34,356 nt of DNA from Methanolinea sp. (GCA_024518585.1 JANIHI010000017.1:1-34356); one strand, 5' to 3'; positions 11,189-19,542 are shown, numbered from the stretch's first letter. Notes: generated from the sequence alone by a model not told the origin. Translations and numbers: made by a program.

Positions 11189-14100
11189 ATGATATCAGTA
11201 CTCCTCGTGGACGATGAACCAGCACTCCTTGACGTGACGCAGATATTTCTTGAGCGGGACGGGAAGATGCAGGTGACCCTCTCGGAATCGGCAAAAGATG
11301 CCCTGCAAAAACTCGAAAAGGGGCATTTTGACATCATCGTCGCGGATTACGAGATGCCGCAGATGAACGGTATTGACTTTTTGCGGGAGGTAAAGGCATC
11401 GGGGTACGACCTCCCCTTCATCATCTTCACGGGGCGCGGAAGGGAACACGTGGCAATCGAGGCATTGAACCTGGGGGCGTCCTTCTACCTCCAGAAGGGA
11501 GGTGACCCCAAGTCCCAGTTTGCCGAGCTGCGCAACATGATCGTTCAGGCCGTCCAGAAGAAACATGCCGAGGAGGAGGTCCGCGCAAACCAGGTTCGGC
11601 TCCAGGCCGTCATTGACCTCTACCAGAGGGCGGGGGATGAGACGCACGATCTCTGCATGTTCGCGCTGGACAAGGCTATTGCCATCTCAGGCAGTCGCAT
11701 CGGGTTCCTCGCCTTTGTCAACGAGCAGGAGACCACGCTCACGATGTATGCCTGGTCCCCATCGGCACTTGAGATCTGCAGCGTCAGGGAGAGGAGAACC
11801 GAATATCCCCTTGAAAAGACGGGTCTCTGGGGTGATCCCGTCAGGCAGCGACGGGCCATCATCACGAATGACTACAGCGGCAATGTCCCCGGGAAGAAGG
11901 GGTATCCCGAAGGTCATCCTCCCCTCACGAGGTACCTGGGAGTGCCCATCCTGGATGGGTCACGTGTCGTGATGGTGATCGGGCTTGCAAACAAGGAGTC
12001 CGATTATACCGGGAATGATGTCCAGCAGGTCACGCTCCTGATGGGGAGCCTCTGGCAGGTGCTTTCGAGGAAAAGGACGGAGTCCGAGCTCATTGCAAGT
12101 GAAAAGAGGTTCCGCTCCTACTTCGAACTCCCGCTGGCAGGAATTGCCATTGCGACACCCGACCTCCGGTGGATCCAGGTCAACCAGAAGTTCTGCCAGA
12201 TGCTTGGGTATACCGCGGGAGAACTTGGCACCCTTTCCTGGACCGACCTGACTCCGGCAGAAGACCGGGAGGGGGAGAAGGAGCGTCTCTCCCGGGTCAT
12301 TTCCGGAAAAGAGCAGTCACTCACCCTTGAAAAAAAGTTCCAACGAAAGGACGGCTCACTCCTGGAGGTCGAGGTTTCTGCCATGCCGGTCAGGAAGGTG
12401 ACCGGTGAGGTGGACTACTTTGTCGCCCTCATCAACGATATCTCGGATCTCAAAAGGACAGAAAGGGAACTGCTTGCATCAAACGAGCAGATGTCGGCAA
12501 CCCTCGAGGAACTCAGGGTGACCCAGGACTCTCTCAACGAGTACTGCCACCGGCTGGAGAGGGAGGAAAAGGCACTCCGCCAGAGCGAGACCCGGTTCCG
12601 GACCATGGTCGAGTCTGCCCCGAGTCTCCTCCTCATCCTGGACCGGGACGGCCGGGTGAGCTATGCCAGCCCGCACAGCGCCAGCTTCACGGGATATACT
12701 CCCGGAGAACTCCAGGACATCGCGTTTGACTTCATCCACCCCGACGACGCTCCCCGCGTCAGGAGCCTCGTCCTCCGTTCGATACAAGAAGGGGCGGGAT
12801 TCAGGAACGTCGAGTTCAGGGCCAGGAAAAAGGACGGGGTAACGTGGTGTGCTTCAGGTTCCATGGAACCGCTCCGCGATGAAAAGGGGGAGATCTCAGG
12901 GTTCATCGTCCAGGTCGTGGACATCTCCCCGCAGAAAGAGGCCGAAAGGGCGCTGCGGCAGAGCGAGGAGAGGACGAGGGAGATCCTGGAGACAATCAAC
13001 GACGTGGTCTTCTCACTTGACGGCGAGGGAAAGATCGTTTACACGAGTCCTGCCGTCACCCGTGCCCTTGGCTACAGTCCCGGGGACCTCTCGGGACGCA
13101 GCTTCACCGAGCTGCTCCTCCCCGAAGACGTCACGGAGGCCGTGCAAGGATACGCCGCATTCAGGACGGGGCAGGTGACGGGTCCCCTTGACCTTGAATG
13201 GAGAGTCCTGAGCCGGAGCGGTGATACCCGGTGGTGCCGTCTCTCCCTGCGCCCGATTGAAAAGGACGGCCACTTTGCAGGATGCACCGGGACCATCACC
13301 GATATCCACGATAAAAAAACGGCAATAGAAACCTTAAAAGAGAGAGAGACGTTACTCCAGGGGATATTCAGGGCCACGCCACTGGGAATCGGCCTTGTCA
13401 GGGACCGGGTACTCCTCTATGTCAATGACTCGGTCTGCCGGATGACGGGATACTCGCGGGACGATCTCGTGGGCAAGAGCAGCCGCCTCCTCTATCCCTC
13501 CGACGAGGAGTTCCGGCGGGTCGGGGAAGAGATGGGGAGCCGCATGTGGGAGACCGGGGGAGAGACTGTCGAGAGCCGCTGGGTGAGAAAGGACGGGTCC
13601 CTGATCGAAGTCCAGATAAGCACGTCCCCGCTTGATCCCGCCGACCATGCCTCCCCGGTTGTCTTTTCGGTCAGGGACATCACGGCGGACAGGGAAATCA
13701 TGGCAACCCTGTACGAAAAAGAGCACTTATTACAGGAATTTTTCGATGCATTCCCCGAACCCGCGTTTCTTGTTGCACAGGGCGGTGAGGTCATCATGGC
13801 AAATGCCGCTTTTTCCAAGCGGTACGGGGTATCCCTATCCCTCACCGGAGGCACGTGCGCCTATTCCCTCGTTGACCCGGACGGGAGAAAGTCGCTGGGG
13901 TCAATTGTGGAATCGGCCCTCCAATCAGGAAATCCCGACCGTTTCATGGCTGTGGAGGGGGGGCGGTCCCTATCGTATACCGTTTTCCCCATCAGGGGTC
14001 CCAGCGGGGTGGCATCCCGGGCGGCTGTATTTTCCTTTGACGTGACAGACCAGGAGAAAGAGCGCAGGGCGCTTGCGCTGGACACGAGGAAGCTCTCCCT

Positions 14101-14719
14101 CCTGGGATCGGTCGTGTGCCACGATGCCGGGTCCCTCGTTGGGGCCCTGTGGAAATACCTCGGTCTCATGAAGGACAAGACCGGTGACCCCCTCCTCCTC
14201 ACCTACATCCGCAAGCAGGAGCGGAACCTGGGAGCACTCGCAGGCCTCCTCTCCCTTGCAGAGGTGTACATTGCCCCCCGGATGCGTTCTCCTGCCTGGC
14301 AGGATGTCAGCAGCACCATCAGGAAAGTCGCGGAGATGCACGACCTGCGCGACGTGACGGTCTTCCTTGACTGCGAGGGTCTCATGGTCCGGGCCGACCC
14401 CCTCCTCGGGGTGGTCTTTTCCCAGCTCGTGGAAAACGCCCTCCGGCACGGTGACAGGGTCTCGAAGATCTCGTTTTCCTACCGGGAGGAGGGGGAGGAT
14501 CTCATCCTCGTGTGCGAGGATGATGGACCCGGCATTTCCCCTGACAGGAAGGAGGCAATTTTCGGGGCGGGGGAGGGAGGGGTCCCGGCCTCCGGTCTCT
14601 CCCTCGCCCGCGAGATCCTCGCACTTTTCGGGTTTATAATCCGAGAGACCGGTGAGGAGGGACATGGTGCACGTTTCGAGATCGTGGTCCCGGCCGGTGC
14701 GTTCCGGATTGGTAAATGA
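11189..14719 (+). CDS. Hybrid sensor histidine kinase: REC-GAF-PAS(5)-HATPase
   Basis: A 1176-residue cytoplasmic sensor with no membrane helix. Order: receiver domain (1-125) with Asp8/Asp9, phospho-acceptor Asp53, Thr81 and Lys103; GAF domain (about 140-290); five PAS domains (about 305-425, 475-590, 595-715, 720-845, 850-955), a coiled coil before the second; then a kinase core. The phospho-acceptor is probably His978 in VVCHDAGSLVGALWKYLGL; the family usually reads His-Asp-Ile-x-Asn here, so this box is divergent. ATP-binding boxes are present: N box QLVENALRHG, G1 EDDGPGIS, G2 GVPASGLSLAREI. With the receiver at the front it may act inside a phosphorelay. Ligand and partner cannot be inferred; no separate response regulator is adjacent. 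Confidence 0.9.
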   Translation: MISVLLVDDEPALLDVTQIFLERDGKMQVTLSESAKDALQKLEKGHFDIIVADYEMPQMNGIDFLREVKASGYDLPFIIFTGRGREHVAIEALNLGASFYLQKGGDPKSQFAELRNMIVQAVQKKHAEEEVRANQVRLQAVIDLYQRAGDETHDLCMFALDKAIAISGSRIGFLAFVNEQETTLTMYAWSPSALEICSVRERRTEYPLEKTGLWGDPVRQRRAIITNDYSGNVPGKKGYPEGHPPLTRYLGVPILDGSRVVMVIGLANKESDYTGNDVQQVTLLMGSLWQVLSRKRTESELIASEKRFRSYFELPLAGIAIATPDLRWIQVNQKFCQMLGYTAGELGTLSWTDLTPAEDREGEKERLSRVISGKEQSLTLEKKFQRKDGSLLEVEVSAMPVRKVTGEVDYFVALINDISDLKRTERELLASNEQMSATLEELRVTQDSLNEYCHRLEREEKALRQSETRFRTMVESAPSLLLILDRDGRVSYASPHSASFTGYTPGELQDIAFDFIHPDDAPRVRSLVLRSIQEGAGFRNVEFRARKKDGVTWCASGSMEPLRDEKGEISGFIVQVVDISPQKEAERALRQSEERTREILETINDVVFSLDGEGKIVYTSPAVTRALGYSPGDLSGRSFTELLLPEDVTEAVQGYAAFRTGQVTGPLDLEWRVLSRSGDTRWCRLSLRPIEKDGHFAGCTGTITDIHDKKTAIETLKERETLLQGIFRATPLGIGLVRDRVLLYVNDSVCRMTGYSRDDLVGKSSRLLYPSDEEFRRVGEEMGSRMWETGGETVESRWVRKDGSLIEVQISTSPLDPADHASPVVFSVRDITADREIMATLYEKEHLLQEFFDAFPEPAFLVAQGGEVIMANAAFSKRYGVSLSLTGGTCAYSLVDPDGRKSLGSIVESALQSGNPDRFMAVEGGRSLSYTVFPIRGPSGVASRAAVFSFDVTDQEKERRALALDTRKLSLLGSVVCHDAGSLVGALWKYLGLMKDKTGDPLLLTYIRKQERNLGALAGLLSLAEVYIAPRMRSPAWQDVSSTIRKVAEMHDLRDVTVFLDCEGLMVRADPLLGVVFSQLVENALRHGDRVSKISFSYREEGEDLILVCEDDGPGISPDRKEAIFGAGEGGVPASGLSLAREILALFGFIIRETGEEGHGARFEIVVPAGAFRIGK

Positions 14720-15761: not shown

Positions 15762-16965
15762 TCACTCCGGGCACATCTCGTGGCAGCAGTAGCACCGGAT
15801 ACATTTCCGGCGTGCTATGCGTGCACGGCCATGCACGATTGTTATTGCATGGACGGGGCATGCCAGGGCACACCTCCCGCATCCCACACACCGGGTGGCA
15901 TCCACGTCGGGACAAAGGTTGTAAACCCTACCGAGGTGATGGATGATGCGGAAAATAAAAGGGACCGAGAACCCAGACTTCCCCCTGGCATACGTGCGCG
16001 GTTTTTTGAAATCGCTCTTCCCGAGATCGTCAGGAGGGTCTCCCAGCAGGGAAATACCGTTGCCATCGAGGGAGACGAGCCCCCGGGCGGCGGCACGGGC
16101 CAGGTAGGGGACCTCGCCTGGGTCAAGGGCCATGAGCCTGCAGAGGACAATGTCGGCTGCAAGTGCATCCCTGCTGGCGACGAGGGGGCACCGATCTTTC
16201 GGGGTGAACCGGCTGATGGGCCGTCACCCTCCATTGCCACGATGGCGTCCACGACGTGGAGGGCCGGCGGGGCGCAGAGGAGGAGGTCGATCAGCATCTC
16301 ACCAAAAATATCCGGATCGGGAAACCGGGAGTGAAAAATCGGTTTTTCGATACCGGGGAGTAACCCAAATGTATTCTTTGTTGCCCCTGTGAGCAGGGTC
16401 AGGACGTGGGTCTTCGCCTTGGAGACGCTCACCACGTAATCCGCGGAAAAGTAGGGGGATATGAGGGGAAAACGGGTACAGACTTTTCCGCCGGGAAAAA
16501 CCTTGTCCCTGTACCCACAATCATAGTTGAGGACGCAGCCGTAGTCCTTTTCGAAATCGCTGTACCCCGCTGCCGAATAGACCCGCTCGAGGTTCTTTTT
16601 TGTGTCCCGCGTTCCACCCCCGGGACTGTCTGCAAGGGTGACAGAAGATCCCCCGGCCCGGATCAGCCTGACCAGCTCGCCGGCCACGACAGGGTGAGTG
16701 CATACCGCCTTCCCGGGGGGGAGGCCCTGGAGGAGGTTTGGCTTGACGAGGACTGCCGAGCCGGGGGGGATGATGCATGCAACTCCCCGATCAGGGCAAC
16801 AGCCCTACCGAGTGCTGCACGGACGTTGTCCTGGCGGTAGTCCGGGCAGGCAACAACGGCAACCGGTATCCTGCCCCCACCGTCTCCCGCCAAGGAGACC
16901 TGCCCTCCTCCCGATAGCGGATCCGCGGCAGGCCCTCCCTCATTTGACCGCGGTATCGTAACCAT
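15762..16965 (-). pseudogene. DUF362 iron-sulfur protein, broken by two frameshifts
   Basis: Three successive minus-strand frames together make one DUF362 protein with a C-terminal two-cluster ferredoxin domain. Frame 1 gives IPVAVVACPDYRQDNVRAAL. Frame 2 gives AVLVKPNLLQGLPPGKAV and SVSKAKTHVLTLLTGATKNT. Frame 3 gives MALDPGEVPYLARAAARG and ends with CVGCGRCALACP and CIRCYCCHEMCPE. Joins fall at plus-strand G runs, seven Gs at 16763-16769 and five at 16184-16188; one extra base in each would restore the whole reading frame. The start may be ATG 16965 (overlapping the kinase gene by 26 bases) or TTG 16893, which has GGGAGGAGGG upstream. Either the gene is decaying or two homopolymer errors are present. 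DUF362 proteins are usually iron-sulfur proteins of unknown substrate. Confidence 0.75.
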
Positions 16966-18727
16966 CTCCGAAAAAAGCCTCCTCTGCTTTTCCAATGTCG
17001 TGGAGGAGGTCGCGCATGTCCCTGTAACGGTCGCCGGGTTCCCGGGCCAGGCACTTCTGGATGATGCTGTCAAGCGGTTCTGCCCCGGGTACATGGGACG
17101 AGGGAGGCAGAAACTCTTCCTCCAGCCTCTCCCGCAGGGCTTCAGCAATACTCCTGCCGGGGAACGGGAGCCTGCCCGTGACCAGCCAGTACCAGATGAT
17201 GCCGAGCTGGTAGATATCTGTCCTCACGGTCGTTTTCCCAAACCGTGCAGGATCGAGCTGCTCGGGTGCTGCATGGGAGAGGGAGAAACCATGGAGAGTC
17301 GAATGGACGTTTTCCTCCCCCTCCCGTGCAAGCCCCCAGTCCCCGACCTTTGGCTCACCGTCTCTCCCAAGGAGGATATTCTCTGGCTTGAGGTCCCGGT
17401 GGATGACACCCTTCTCGTGCGCGTACCTGATTGCCTCTGCAATTTTCCTGACGATCTCCAGGGATTTCCCGGGACTGACCGGAACAGGAATGTCCGCGAG
17501 GCTCCCCGGCAGGTATTCCATCTCGACGAAAGGAACGGGGAGGATGTTTGCGGCATAGATACGGACGATGCCCGGGTGGTCCAGTCCCTTCCAGACGTTC
17601 ATCTCCCGTAGGAACGACTTTCCTGTCTGTTCATCCGTCCTGATCGGCACCTTGACCGCGACCCGGGTACCATCAGACCTCCGGCATGCAGAATAGACCT
17701 GGGCGATTCCCCCCTGGTGGAGGAAACGTGCCGCGATATACCTCTGACCGAGGGCGGGCGGGAGCGTGGGCACGGGGGCACCGTCATCATCTTCGAAGAG
17801 AAGGGTATCAGGTACTTCCCCTCCCTGGCTATAGGCCACCGATCTCTTCTCCCTCGCCTGGAAAGCGCCTGCAGCAATGCCTGTCGCGAACGGGACGACG
17901 GCAATGGAGAGAGGAAGGGAGCGCCATGGTTCCCGTATGACGGCCAGGGAGAGAAGGGCACCCACCGTGCAGACAAGGATATGGAGGAGGACAACTCGCA
18001 CATCCAATTGTCCACGGGACGAGGAGATTGCCATTCCAAGTGAGGAGAGGGCCGCAAACCCCATCAGGGGGAGGGAGATGAGGAGGAAGACGGGGTCGGA
18101 TGTCCCCCGCATCGCGGGTAAAAGGAGGGGGAGTGCGCTTGCGAGCAGTCCCGCGGAGAAACAAATGGCCAGGACAGCATAGAATGCGGCAAAGACGCGG
18201 CGGTTGGGCTCCCACCAGCCCCGCCTGCCCTGACCGGGATGGCGGATACTGTCCCGCAGCAGGGCGATGATTCCGGCCCCCCCGCCCACGAGGAGTCCTA
18301 TGGCAAGGGCAAGGCCCATTCCATACCCCTCGTCGACGGGGACCATTTCCCCTACCGGGGGACCTGCAACACTCCCGTTTGCACCGGGGGTCACCGCAGG
18401 GGAGGGGAGGGGGATAGTCGTCTCCTGGGGGGTTGGGAGTGGCCCGGGAGTGCCGGGACCGGTGGGGACCGCGGTTGGCGGGAGTGTCCTTCGGGGGATG
18501 GTCACCGTGGGGGGAGTGATTTTCGGCACTGTCACCGTGGGATGCAGGAATGATTCGTTGATGGCTGGACCCTGTTTGAGAAGGGTCCACAACTCCTCTG
18601 ATACTGACATGTTCGGGACGGGTGTCGGCTTAAGCAGGCCTGACGGGACCCCTGCCTGGCAGGCAGGAAGGACGAGGAGAATGGCGATTGCACACGCAAC
18701 GGCGGCCCTTCCCTCTTTTGCCTTCAT
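16940..18727 (-). CDS. Membrane-bound Ser/Thr protein kinase
   Basis: A 595-residue eukaryotic-type kinase. Order: signal peptide (about 1-25, ending near LPACQAG); Pro/Thr-rich outer stalk (about 30-125); five hydrophobic helices (about 135-290); kinase domain (about 325-590). Catalytic features: Gly-rich loop LHQGGIAQVYSA, Lys in VAVKVPI, HRDLKPEN catalytic loop, GDWGLARE in place of the usual Asp-Phe-Gly, and AAPEQLD. An odd number of helices after the signal puts the kinase inside the cell. The start overlaps the stop of the FHA-regulator gene (ATGA 18724-18727), so both are made together. The stalk suggests sensing outside the cell; the signal is unknown. Confidence 0.9.
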   Translation of the reverse strand: MKAKEGRAAVACAIAILLVLPACQAGVPSGLLKPTPVPNMSVSEELWTLLKQGPAINESFLHPTVTVPKITPPTVTIPRRTLPPTAVPTGPGTPGPLPTPQETTIPLPSPAVTPGANGSVAGPPVGEMVPVDEGYGMGLALAIGLLVGGGAGIIALLRDSIRHPGQGRRGWWEPNRRVFAAFYAVLAICFSAGLLASALPLLLPAMRGTSDPVFLLISLPLMGFAALSSLGMAISSSRGQLDVRVVLLHILVCTVGALLSLAVIREPWRSLPLSIAVVPFATGIAAGAFQAREKRSVAYSQGGEVPDTLLFEDDDGAPVPTLPPALGQRYIAARFLHQGGIAQVYSACRRSDGTRVAVKVPIRTDEQTGKSFLREMNVWKGLDHPGIVRIYAANILPVPFVEMEYLPGSLADIPVPVSPGKSLEIVRKIAEAIRYAHEKGVIHRDLKPENILLGRDGEPKVGDWGLAREGEENVHSTLHGFSLSHAAPEQLDPARFGKTTVRTDIYQLGIIWYWLVTGRLPFPGRSIAEALRERLEEEFLPPSSHVPGAEPLDSIIQKCLAREPGDRYRDMRDLLHDIGKAEEAFFGDGYDTAVK

Positions 18728-19542
18728 CGGACCCCCGTGGAACTCCCCGTGTTCCTCACAAAGACAAGTGTTGCGCCAAAATCTCCCCGGGAGAGGGAGA
18801 CCATGTCACCATCCCGGACCGGGACGGACTCGAAAGGCCGAACCTTTCTTCCATTCAGGAACGTCCCACCGGTGCTTCCCCTGTCCTCGATACTGCACCC
18901 TTTAGGCCCTGCTTCGATCACAGCGTGCGGCCGGGAGATACGACTGACCGACCTGTAGGAGGGCGGAAGTGACAGGGAGCCATTGCCCTTGAGGGACACT
19001 TCCCCCTGGCCCTCTTCCGCCCTCCCGATGGCCGTCCGGCCGGGGGGGAGGGAAAGGACGTGCCCGTCCCATTCCCCTCCCTCCAGGAGGAGTGCCCAGG
19101 GTCCGCATCCCAGCTCGAGCGTCACCTTCTGCTGGATCCTGCTGACCTTCTCCGCCGGCAGCTGTCCACCGGGATAGCGGGAAATGGCGGCAAGGACGCC
19201 AAGGTCGTGGTGGACCCACTCCAGCACACCGGGCACGGGATAATAGACCCAGGCAGGGTGGATTCCCTTTGAGGTCTCCCTGCCAAGGCCAGGGCGCCGT
19301 GTGATGAGTCCGCTGTGGAGGAGCTGTTCGAGGTGTTTTTTTATGGTCTCATACGAGACTTCCGTCCTGGCGGATATCGTCCTTGCATCCATGGGCTCCT
19401 TTTCGAGGAGGACAAGAATACGCAGGCGGGTACTGTTCGAAAGGACGTCCATGTACTCACAGAGCTCCTCGATGAAGCCATGGTCGTCCGCACTCAGGAT
19501 GGTCTTTCCAATCTCCCGGACCTTTTTGTCCCTTTCCTGCAC
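18724..19542 (-). CDS. Winged-helix DNA-binding protein fused to an FHA domain
   Basis: About 272 residues. The N-terminal half is an ArsR-like winged helix: MDVLSNSTRLRILVLLEKEP, then ARTEVSYETIKKHLEQLLHS as recognition region. The C-terminal half is a forkhead-associated domain, which binds phosphothreonine: TAIGRAEEG, the Ser/His core in VSRISRPHAVIE, and STGGTFLNGRKV. Such a protein could read a kinase's phosphorylation state and act directly on a promoter. GTG 19542 is chosen because the longer frame to 19746 runs into msrB. Its stop overlaps the start of the membrane kinase. The partner relation is inferred from this overlap. Confidence 0.85.
   Translation of the reverse strand: MQERDKKVREIGKTILSADDHGFIEELCEYMDVLSNSTRLRILVLLEKEPMDARTISARTEVSYETIKKHLEQLLHSGLITRRPGLGRETSKGIHPAWVYYPVPGVLEWVHHDLGVLAAISRYPGGQLPAEKVSRIQQKVTLELGCGPWALLLEGGEWDGHVLSLPPGRTAIGRAEEGQGEVSLKGNGSLSLPPSYRSVSRISRPHAVIEAGPKGCSIEDRGSTGGTFLNGRKVRPFESVPVRDGDMVSLSRGDFGATLVFVRNTGSSTGVR

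What the first reader, a model, noticed from the sequence alone, without database searches (positions are those of the whole stretch)
16940..19542. Candidate two-gene phospho-threonine signalling system: membrane kinase plus winged-helix/FHA regulator
An FHA domain, which binds phosphothreonine, is fused to an ArsR-type winged helix. The gene overlaps by ATGA with a membrane Ser/Thr kinase that has a Pro/Thr-rich outer stalk and five helices. This gives a complete short path: outside signal, kinase, phosphothreonine, DNA-binding reader. It is a eukaryotic-style alternative to the two-component systems that dominate in these archaea. I know of no characterised archaeal system of this design.
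Basis: partly seen in the sequence, partly recalled or inferred. Interest (0 to 1): 0.72.

Follow-up and report, generated by a model that had tools for sequence, protein, structure and literature searches.

The report
Archaeal kinase–FHA DNA-switch gene pair
In one order of methane-making archaea, a membrane protein kinase is almost always encoded next to a DNA-binding protein that can read phosphorylated threonine, which looks like a complete but untested outside-to-DNA signalling route unlike the usual histidine-based ones.

Summary
On the minus strand a winged-helix–FHA regulator (19542–18724) overlaps by ATGA a membrane Ser/Thr kinase (18727–16940). Pairing is conserved: 69 of 75 full-length regulators in 61 genomes have the kinase just downstream on the same strand; at least four of the six exceptions look like contig breaks, and one is followed by a PP2C phosphatase. 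The kinase keeps every catalytic residue, and DWG is invariant (40/40), a family signature rather than decay. The family is confined to the window's order (Methanomicrobiales); all 72 FHA hits there lie in this regulator. New here: an invariant Thr in the regulator's disordered N-tail followed by two hydrophobics (TΦΦ), and the same motif in the kinase's juxtamembrane linker (30/41 versus 4.7 in shuffles). Partner-specific co-evolution, PP2C genes beside the pair in nine genomes and, in some genera, an upstream palindrome add support. Best reading: the kinase phosphorylates its linker and the regulator's tail, and FHA reads these marks to change DNA binding. It works like mycobacterial PknH–EmbR but is not a member. 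Phosphorylation, DNA binding, signal and targets are untested.

The parts
18724..19542 (-). Winged-helix-FHA regulator (P0001, 272 aa, GTG start)
   Evidence: AF2 model of residues 9-272, pLDDT 86
19501..19503 (-). Thr14 codon: invariant threonine in the disordered N-tail, proposed phosphosite and FHA ligand (motif T-I-L-S-A-D-D)
   Evidence: Thr at a fixed 16 residues before Tyr30 in essentially all of about 100 distinct regulators, +1 always I/V/L
19300..19437 (-). ArsR-type winged helix (residues 36-81)
   Evidence: Pfam HTH_5, HTH_20, TrmB above cut-off
18754..19098 (-). FHA domain (residues about 149-263)
   Evidence: Pfam FHA; Foldseek hits to solved FHA domains, best DgcB with its phospho-tail 6hc1; R174, H206, N230 invariant, S203 mostly S/T, Rad53 N107 equivalent is G225
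16940..18727 (-). Membrane Ser/Thr kinase (P0002, 595 aa), ATGA overlap with the regulator
18344..18658 (-). Outer Pro/Thr-rich stalk (residues 24-128), predicted disordered
17828..18328 (-). Five predicted transmembrane helices (residues 134-300)
17783..17806 (-). Juxtamembrane motif T308-L-L-F-E-D-D-D, proposed phospho-docking site for the regulator's FHA domain
   Evidence: T-hydrophobic-hydrophobic in 30 of 41 linkers versus 4.7 (sd 2.0) in shuffles
16970..17767 (-). Kinase domain (residues 321-586): K359, E375, H443-R-D445, N450, D463-W-G465, A487-P-E489
   Evidence: alignment A2

Best explanation
A lineage-specific writer-reader phosphothreonine module linking the cell surface to DNA. 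The extracytoplasmic part of the kinase (a stalk here; beta-helix/NosD or PEGA domains in relatives) senses an unknown cue. The cytoplasmic kinase domain phosphorylates Thr in its own juxtamembrane linker (T308 in the window) and Thr14 in the disordered N-tail of the partner regulator. Both lie in a T-hydrophobic-hydrophobic-x-acidic-like motif. The regulator's FHA domain reads these marks: docking on the phosphorylated linker brings regulator to kinase, and binding of pThr14, in cis or across a dimer, repositions the winged helices and changes DNA binding. PP2C-type phosphatases, encoded beside the pair in some genomes, would reset it. In some genera a direct target is probably the pair's own promoter, through a GGTTSA-N5-TGAACC palindrome. 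Shown here: genes, domains, intact catalytic residues, pairing, co-evolution, the two Thr motifs, the upstream palindrome in relatives. Inferred: phosphorylation, FHA binding of these sites, direction of the effect on DNA binding, signal and regulon.
For: Pairing: 69/75 full-length regulators have the kinase downstream on the same strand; several junctions overlap by 4 nt. Different neighbours across families argue against plain synteny. Partner-specific co-evolution: distance correlation r = 0.64 for 40 pairs; reshuffling partners within the same genome reaches this in 9 of 5000 trials. Kinase catalytic set invariant in 40/40. Regulator tail Thr essentially invariant, never Ser, +1 I/V/L in 99/99, +3 L/I/V in 73/99. 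Same T-hydrophobic-hydrophobic motif in 30/41 kinase linkers, shuffled mean 4.7, maximum 12 in 2000 shuffles; Ser version 4/41; 18/29 outside the window's subclade versus 3.6. Only 1 of 7 usable linkers of kinases without a neighbouring regulator has it (Fisher p = 0.005). Best fold match is DgcB's FHA bound to its own phosphorylated N-tail (PMC6733907). PP2C within 400 nt, same strand, of regulator or kinase in nine genomes. Upstream palindrome: 31/92 loci versus about 6.5 shuffled; spacer 5 gives 19 hits, other spacers at most 3.
Against: No biochemistry. The canonical FHA Asn (Rad53 N107) is Gly in nearly the whole family, and the pThr-contacting Ser is Glu in 3 of 42, so pThr affinity must be tested. 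The window's tail has Ser, not a hydrophobic, at +3. The second pair of the window's genus lacks the motif in its linkers (most have DVTRA[V/L]). G007 keeps the window-type kinase without its regulator, so the kinase may have other substrates. No palindrome was found upstream of the window's own regulator, where msrB lies 86 nt upstream. In PknH-EmbR itself, phosphorylation seen in vitro was not detected in vivo (PMC9239209).
Confidence: 0.6

Rival explanations
1. Sequestration: the FHA domain binds only the phosphorylated juxtamembrane linker of the kinase and holds the regulator at the membrane, away from DNA. The regulator is not itself a phospho-switch, and the tail Thr is structural.
For: The T-hydrophobic-hydrophobic motif recurs in otherwise unconserved linkers, 30/41 versus 4.7 in shuffles, and is mostly missing in kinases without a neighbouring regulator.
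Against: Thr14 lies in the low-confidence tail about seven residues before the first helix, yet is essentially invariant with the same hydrophobic context; a structural role there is hard to see.
Confidence: 0.2
2. Phospho-independent regulator plus general kinase: FHA serves as a dimerisation or protein-binding scaffold, and the kinase acts mainly on other proteins such as envelope or S-layer components.
For: Rad53 N107 is replaced by Gly in nearly all members; G007 keeps the kinase without its partner; lone relatives of the kinase exist in a genome without the regulator.
Against: Phosphate-contacting R174 is invariant and S203 is Ser/Thr in 39/42; co-evolution and shared Thr motifs; PP2C neighbours.
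Confidence: 0.13
3. The kinase is a pseudokinase because of DWG and its altered glycine loop (H337, A342).
For: The window's glycine loop reads HQGGIAQV instead of GxGxxGxV.
Against: K359, E375, H443, D445, N450, D463 and the Pro-Glu of APE are invariant in 40/40; the second loop Gly is kept in 40/40; DWG is invariant across the family.
Confidence: 0.03
4. Genomic inertia: the two genes stay together by vertical inheritance without acting on each other.
For: Within the genus, neighbours such as msrB, PEGA and infB are also conserved.
Against: Across families the neighbours change while the pair stays; duplicated pairs co-evolve as partners.
Confidence: 0.04

Closest known systems
PknH-EmbR (Mycobacterium tuberculosis)
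   Same: Membrane Ser/Thr kinase encoded just downstream of a winged-helix-FHA transcription factor in one operon; FHA needed for interaction with and phosphorylation by the kinase (PMC9239209).
   Different: EmbR has an OmpR-type winged helix plus BTAD; here the head is ArsR-type with no BTAD. The archaeal kinase has several membrane helices, and beta-helix or PEGA outer domains in relatives. No sign of common descent as a pair.
ArnA/ArnB with kinases ArnC/ArnD and PP2A (Sulfolobales)
   Same: Archaeal FHA protein in transcription control with Ser/Thr kinases and a phosphatase (PMC6509490, PMC10470591).
   Different: ArnA is Zn-ribbon-FHA with a vWA partner. Here the FHA protein carries its own winged helix and is encoded with a membrane kinase.
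GarA/OdhI and DgcB (self-binding FHA proteins)
   Same: N-terminal phospho-Thr tail bound by the protein's own FHA domain; DgcB tail complex is the best fold match.
   Different: Output is a metabolic enzyme partner or a GGDEF cyclase, not a DNA-binding head.
PknB/StkP-type Hanks kinases
   Same: Kinase domain, best PDB sequence match.
   Different: No PASTA domains; DWG instead of DFG; altered glycine loop.

Membership tests
PknH-EmbR type system | Transcription factor with C-terminal FHA encoded next to a membrane Ser/Thr kinase | tested here: met
PknH-EmbR type system | OmpR-type winged helix plus BTAD (SARP) in the regulator | tested here: not met
   Pfam finds HTH_5/ArsR and no OmpR-type or BTAD domain; the model has only two helices between winged helix and FHA
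PknH-EmbR type system | Kinase phosphorylates the regulator through FHA recognition | not testable with these tools
   Motif evidence only
Hanks-type Ser/Thr kinase | Catalytic K, E, HxD, N, DxG, APE | tested here: met
   Invariant in 40/40 except A487 (A/S); K359, E375, H443/D445, N450, D463/G465
Hanks-type Ser/Thr kinase | GxGxxG loop | tested here: inconclusive
   Second Gly kept 40/40; first is G in 25/40 and H in the window; third is mostly A
PASTA kinase (PknB/StkP) | Extracellular PASTA repeats and a full-length model match | tested here: not met
   NCBIfam PASTA-kinase model 178.9 bits, cut-off 450, kinase part only; no PASTA among Pfam hits of 41 members
FHA domain | Pfam FHA above gathering score; phosphate-contacting Arg and Ser | tested here: met
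   44.7 versus 20.7 bits; R174 42/42, S203 S 33, T 6, E 3
FHA domain | Canonical Asn (Rad53 N107) of the SxNGT loop | tested here: not met
   Position 225 is Gly in 98% of the family, SxGGT
ArnA (Sulfolobales FHA repressor) | N-terminal Zn-ribbon joined to FHA | tested here: not met
   No Zn-ribbon among Pfam hits; winged helix instead
Two-component system | His kinase and receiver domains in the pair | tested here: not met
   No HisKA, HATPase or receiver hits in either protein

The most novel reading that the evidence does not exclude
An order-wide archaeal Ser/Thr counterpart of the two-component system: dedicated membrane kinase, FHA-winged-helix response protein and PP2C, where one pThr-hydrophobic-hydrophobic motif in both kinase linker and regulator tail is read by the same FHA domain, giving docking and switching with one recognition code. 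It would be the only use of FHA in these archaea.
Probability: 0.5. Interest if true: 0.78.

Novelty: new variant of a known kind. Interest (0 to 1): 0.68.

Why it matters
Membrane-to-DNA signalling through Ser/Thr phosphorylation is hardly known in archaea. The literature held here states that FHA proteins are conserved only in Crenarchaeota within the archaea (PMC10470591), but this survey finds an FHA regulator in most sampled genomes of another order, nearly always beside a kinase. That gives a defined kinase–substrate–reader set with named candidate phosphosites, testable in vitro with short peptides and a soluble kinase domain.

Tried and rejected
Inactive kinase because of DWG: rejected, DWG and catalytic residues are invariant. 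Chance neighbours: rejected. Synteny alone: unlikely. Regulon search with the exact palindrome in 23 genomes of one genus: 0–4 sites per genome, more than the reversed control, but most examined sites lie inside genes, so no regulon is claimed. Palindrome in the window: below chance level. Inverted repeats around the window's regulator start: only one, within the end of msrB. A first test of the linker motif over 75 residues was uninformative because membrane helices raise the background; the 30-residue linker test replaced it. Broad Thr conservation in the kinase activation loop was noted but not pursued.

Full report
The sequence observation is correct. The regulator runs from 19542 to 18724 on the minus strand and the kinase from 18727 to 16940, sharing ATGA. 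Pfam places an ArsR-type helix-turn-helix and an FHA domain in the first, and a protein kinase domain in the second, all above curated cut-offs. A model of the regulator (pLDDT 86) shows winged helix, two helices, then FHA. A model of the kinase shows a signal helix, a disordered stalk, five membrane helices, a disordered linker and a confident kinase domain. By topology the kinase domain is cytoplasmic.

Pairing is conserved. Searching 61 genomes of the order gave 75 full-length regulators, and 69 have the kinase downstream on the same strand. Of the six others, four have contig ends shortly after the regulator, or their kinase match at a contig end; a fifth (G014) has regulator and kinase on separate contigs and was not resolved. 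The sixth (G018) has a PP2C phosphatase gene directly behind the regulator. Gene models of 40 pairs give mostly overlaps or short gaps between the genes. The window's own genome has a second, diverged pair. Neighbouring genes differ between families. Regulator and kinase distances correlate (r = 0.64), and reshuffling partners among pairs of the same genome reached that value in 9 of 5000 trials. The sequences in that test are related, so the number is not a strict probability.

Distribution. The family is strong in the window's order, and none of the roughly 220 sampled genomes from the rest of the phylum matched at 1e-12. One family (f6) mostly lacks it. All 72 FHA hits found in the order lie inside this regulator family; four other genomes of the phylum have FHA hits outside it. 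This qualifies the statement in PMC10470591 that FHA proteins are conserved only in Crenarchaeota.

The kinase is expected to be active. Lys359, Glu375, His443, Asp445, Lys447, Asn450, Asp463, Trp464 and Gly465 are the same in 40 of 40. DWG is therefore a signature of the family; human CK2, an active kinase, also has DWG (general knowledge). The first and third loop glycines are relaxed, which leaves some doubt about ATP handling.

FHA residues. Gly173, Arg174, Arg201, His206, Ser223, Gly226 and Asn230 are invariant; Ser203, matching Rad53 Ser85, is Ser or Thr in 39 of 42. The Rad53 Asn107 position is Gly. The position match is my reading of the conserved motifs; in DgcB the equivalent Asn97 contacts the bound tail (PMC6733907). 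This is the main reason to test pThr binding directly.

Two threonine motifs. In about 100 distinct regulators a Thr sits 16 residues before Tyr30 (15 in two), in a tail of low model confidence, followed by I/V/L at +1 in 99 of 99 and by L/I/V at +3 in 73 of 99. The count used a Thr-anchored pattern; the one sequence it missed carries Thr as well on inspection, and one degenerate second-copy regulator (L090) lacks the motif. DgcB, GarA and OdhI bind their own phospho-Thr N-tails with FHA, and in DgcB the +3 residue is a valine in a pocket. In the kinases, the 30 residues before the kinase domain, otherwise hardly conserved, hold T-hydrophobic-hydrophobic in 30 of 41, against 4.7 (sd 2.0, maximum 12) in 2000 shuffles; with Ser in place of Thr it is 4, and reversed 6. 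Excluding the window's subclade it is 18 of 29 against 3.6. Of kinases without a neighbouring regulator, 1 of 7 with a readable linker has it. The preference for Thr over Ser is what an FHA reader would impose. The linker motif was noticed before it was tested, so the test is not fully independent of the discovery.

Third partner. PP2C-type phosphatases lie within 400 nt on the same strand in nine genomes, in three arrangements: upstream of the regulator, downstream of the kinase, and just after the regulator. In the window's genome the only PP2C hit is elsewhere (C16).

Possible operator. Upstream of 92 regulators, GGTTSA-N5-TGAACC-like sites occur with up to three mismatches in 31, against about 6.5 in shuffles. 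At two mismatches, spacer 5 gives 19 and any other spacer at most 3. Several loci have two copies 21 bp apart, often 40–60 bp upstream of a TATA-like AATATAAAC. Many of these loci are related Methanoregula sequences, which inflates the count. The window lacks it. A position upstream of TATA would fit activation of the pair's own promoter; this is inference.

Signal. Outer parts of the kinases vary: NosD in 8, beta-helix in 6, PEGA in 6 of 41 members. In the window the outer part is only a stalk, but a secreted PEGA protein is encoded upstream. In the window's genus msrB sits directly upstream of the window-type regulator in 10 of 11 other loci. A surface or redox cue is possible but unproven.

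Comparison. The logic matches PknH–EmbR (PMC9239209), but the DNA-binding head differs and no BTAD is present, so it is not a member. The same paper reports that EmbR phosphorylation was not detected in vivo, a caution for the present model. It differs from Arn by domain make-up. I found no paper describing this family; the library holds only open-licence papers, so that is not proof of absence.

Verdict: a real, conserved, lineage-specific signalling module whose mechanism is well supported by sequence but untested. New variant of a known kind.

Noticed in passing
window 15762-16940, minus strand: The gene downstream of the kinase, DUF362 with a ferredoxin domain, is split over frames (DUF362 part 16687-15842, Fer4 part 16133-15762): a frameshift or assembly error near 16133, perhaps a second near 16790.
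   Followed up: partly
G000:C13:6321-9576 (L008): A second regulator-kinase pair; its kinase has a PEGA-like outer domain and a long TTSPPTT repeat stalk, next to hydrogenase-like genes and an endonuclease V-like gene.
   Followed up: partly
L080:5595-7052 (G007): Natural loss: the window-type kinase is kept with its TTLFED linker, while its regulator and msrB are gone.
   Followed up: partly
L090:5116-11600 (G018): Regulator, PP2C, an acyl-CoA synthetase-like gene, a degenerate second regulator without the tail motif, and a kinase in one stretch.
   Followed up: partly
upstream of regulators, e.g. L093, L134, L148, L178: Palindrome GGTTSA-N5-TGAACC, often two copies 21 bp apart.
   Followed up: partly
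G265, G304, G310, G328: Four genomes outside the order carry FHA hits; in three of them the hits cluster, two or three within a few kb. They do not match this regulator family.
   Followed up: no
L250, L251 (G034, G023): Tandem arrays of three membrane kinase-like genes in which my HRD and DxG patterns were not found: possible pseudokinases.
   Followed up: no
window 11189-14719: Receiver-GAF-multi-PAS histidine kinase near the pair, conserved nearby in the genus.
   Followed up: no
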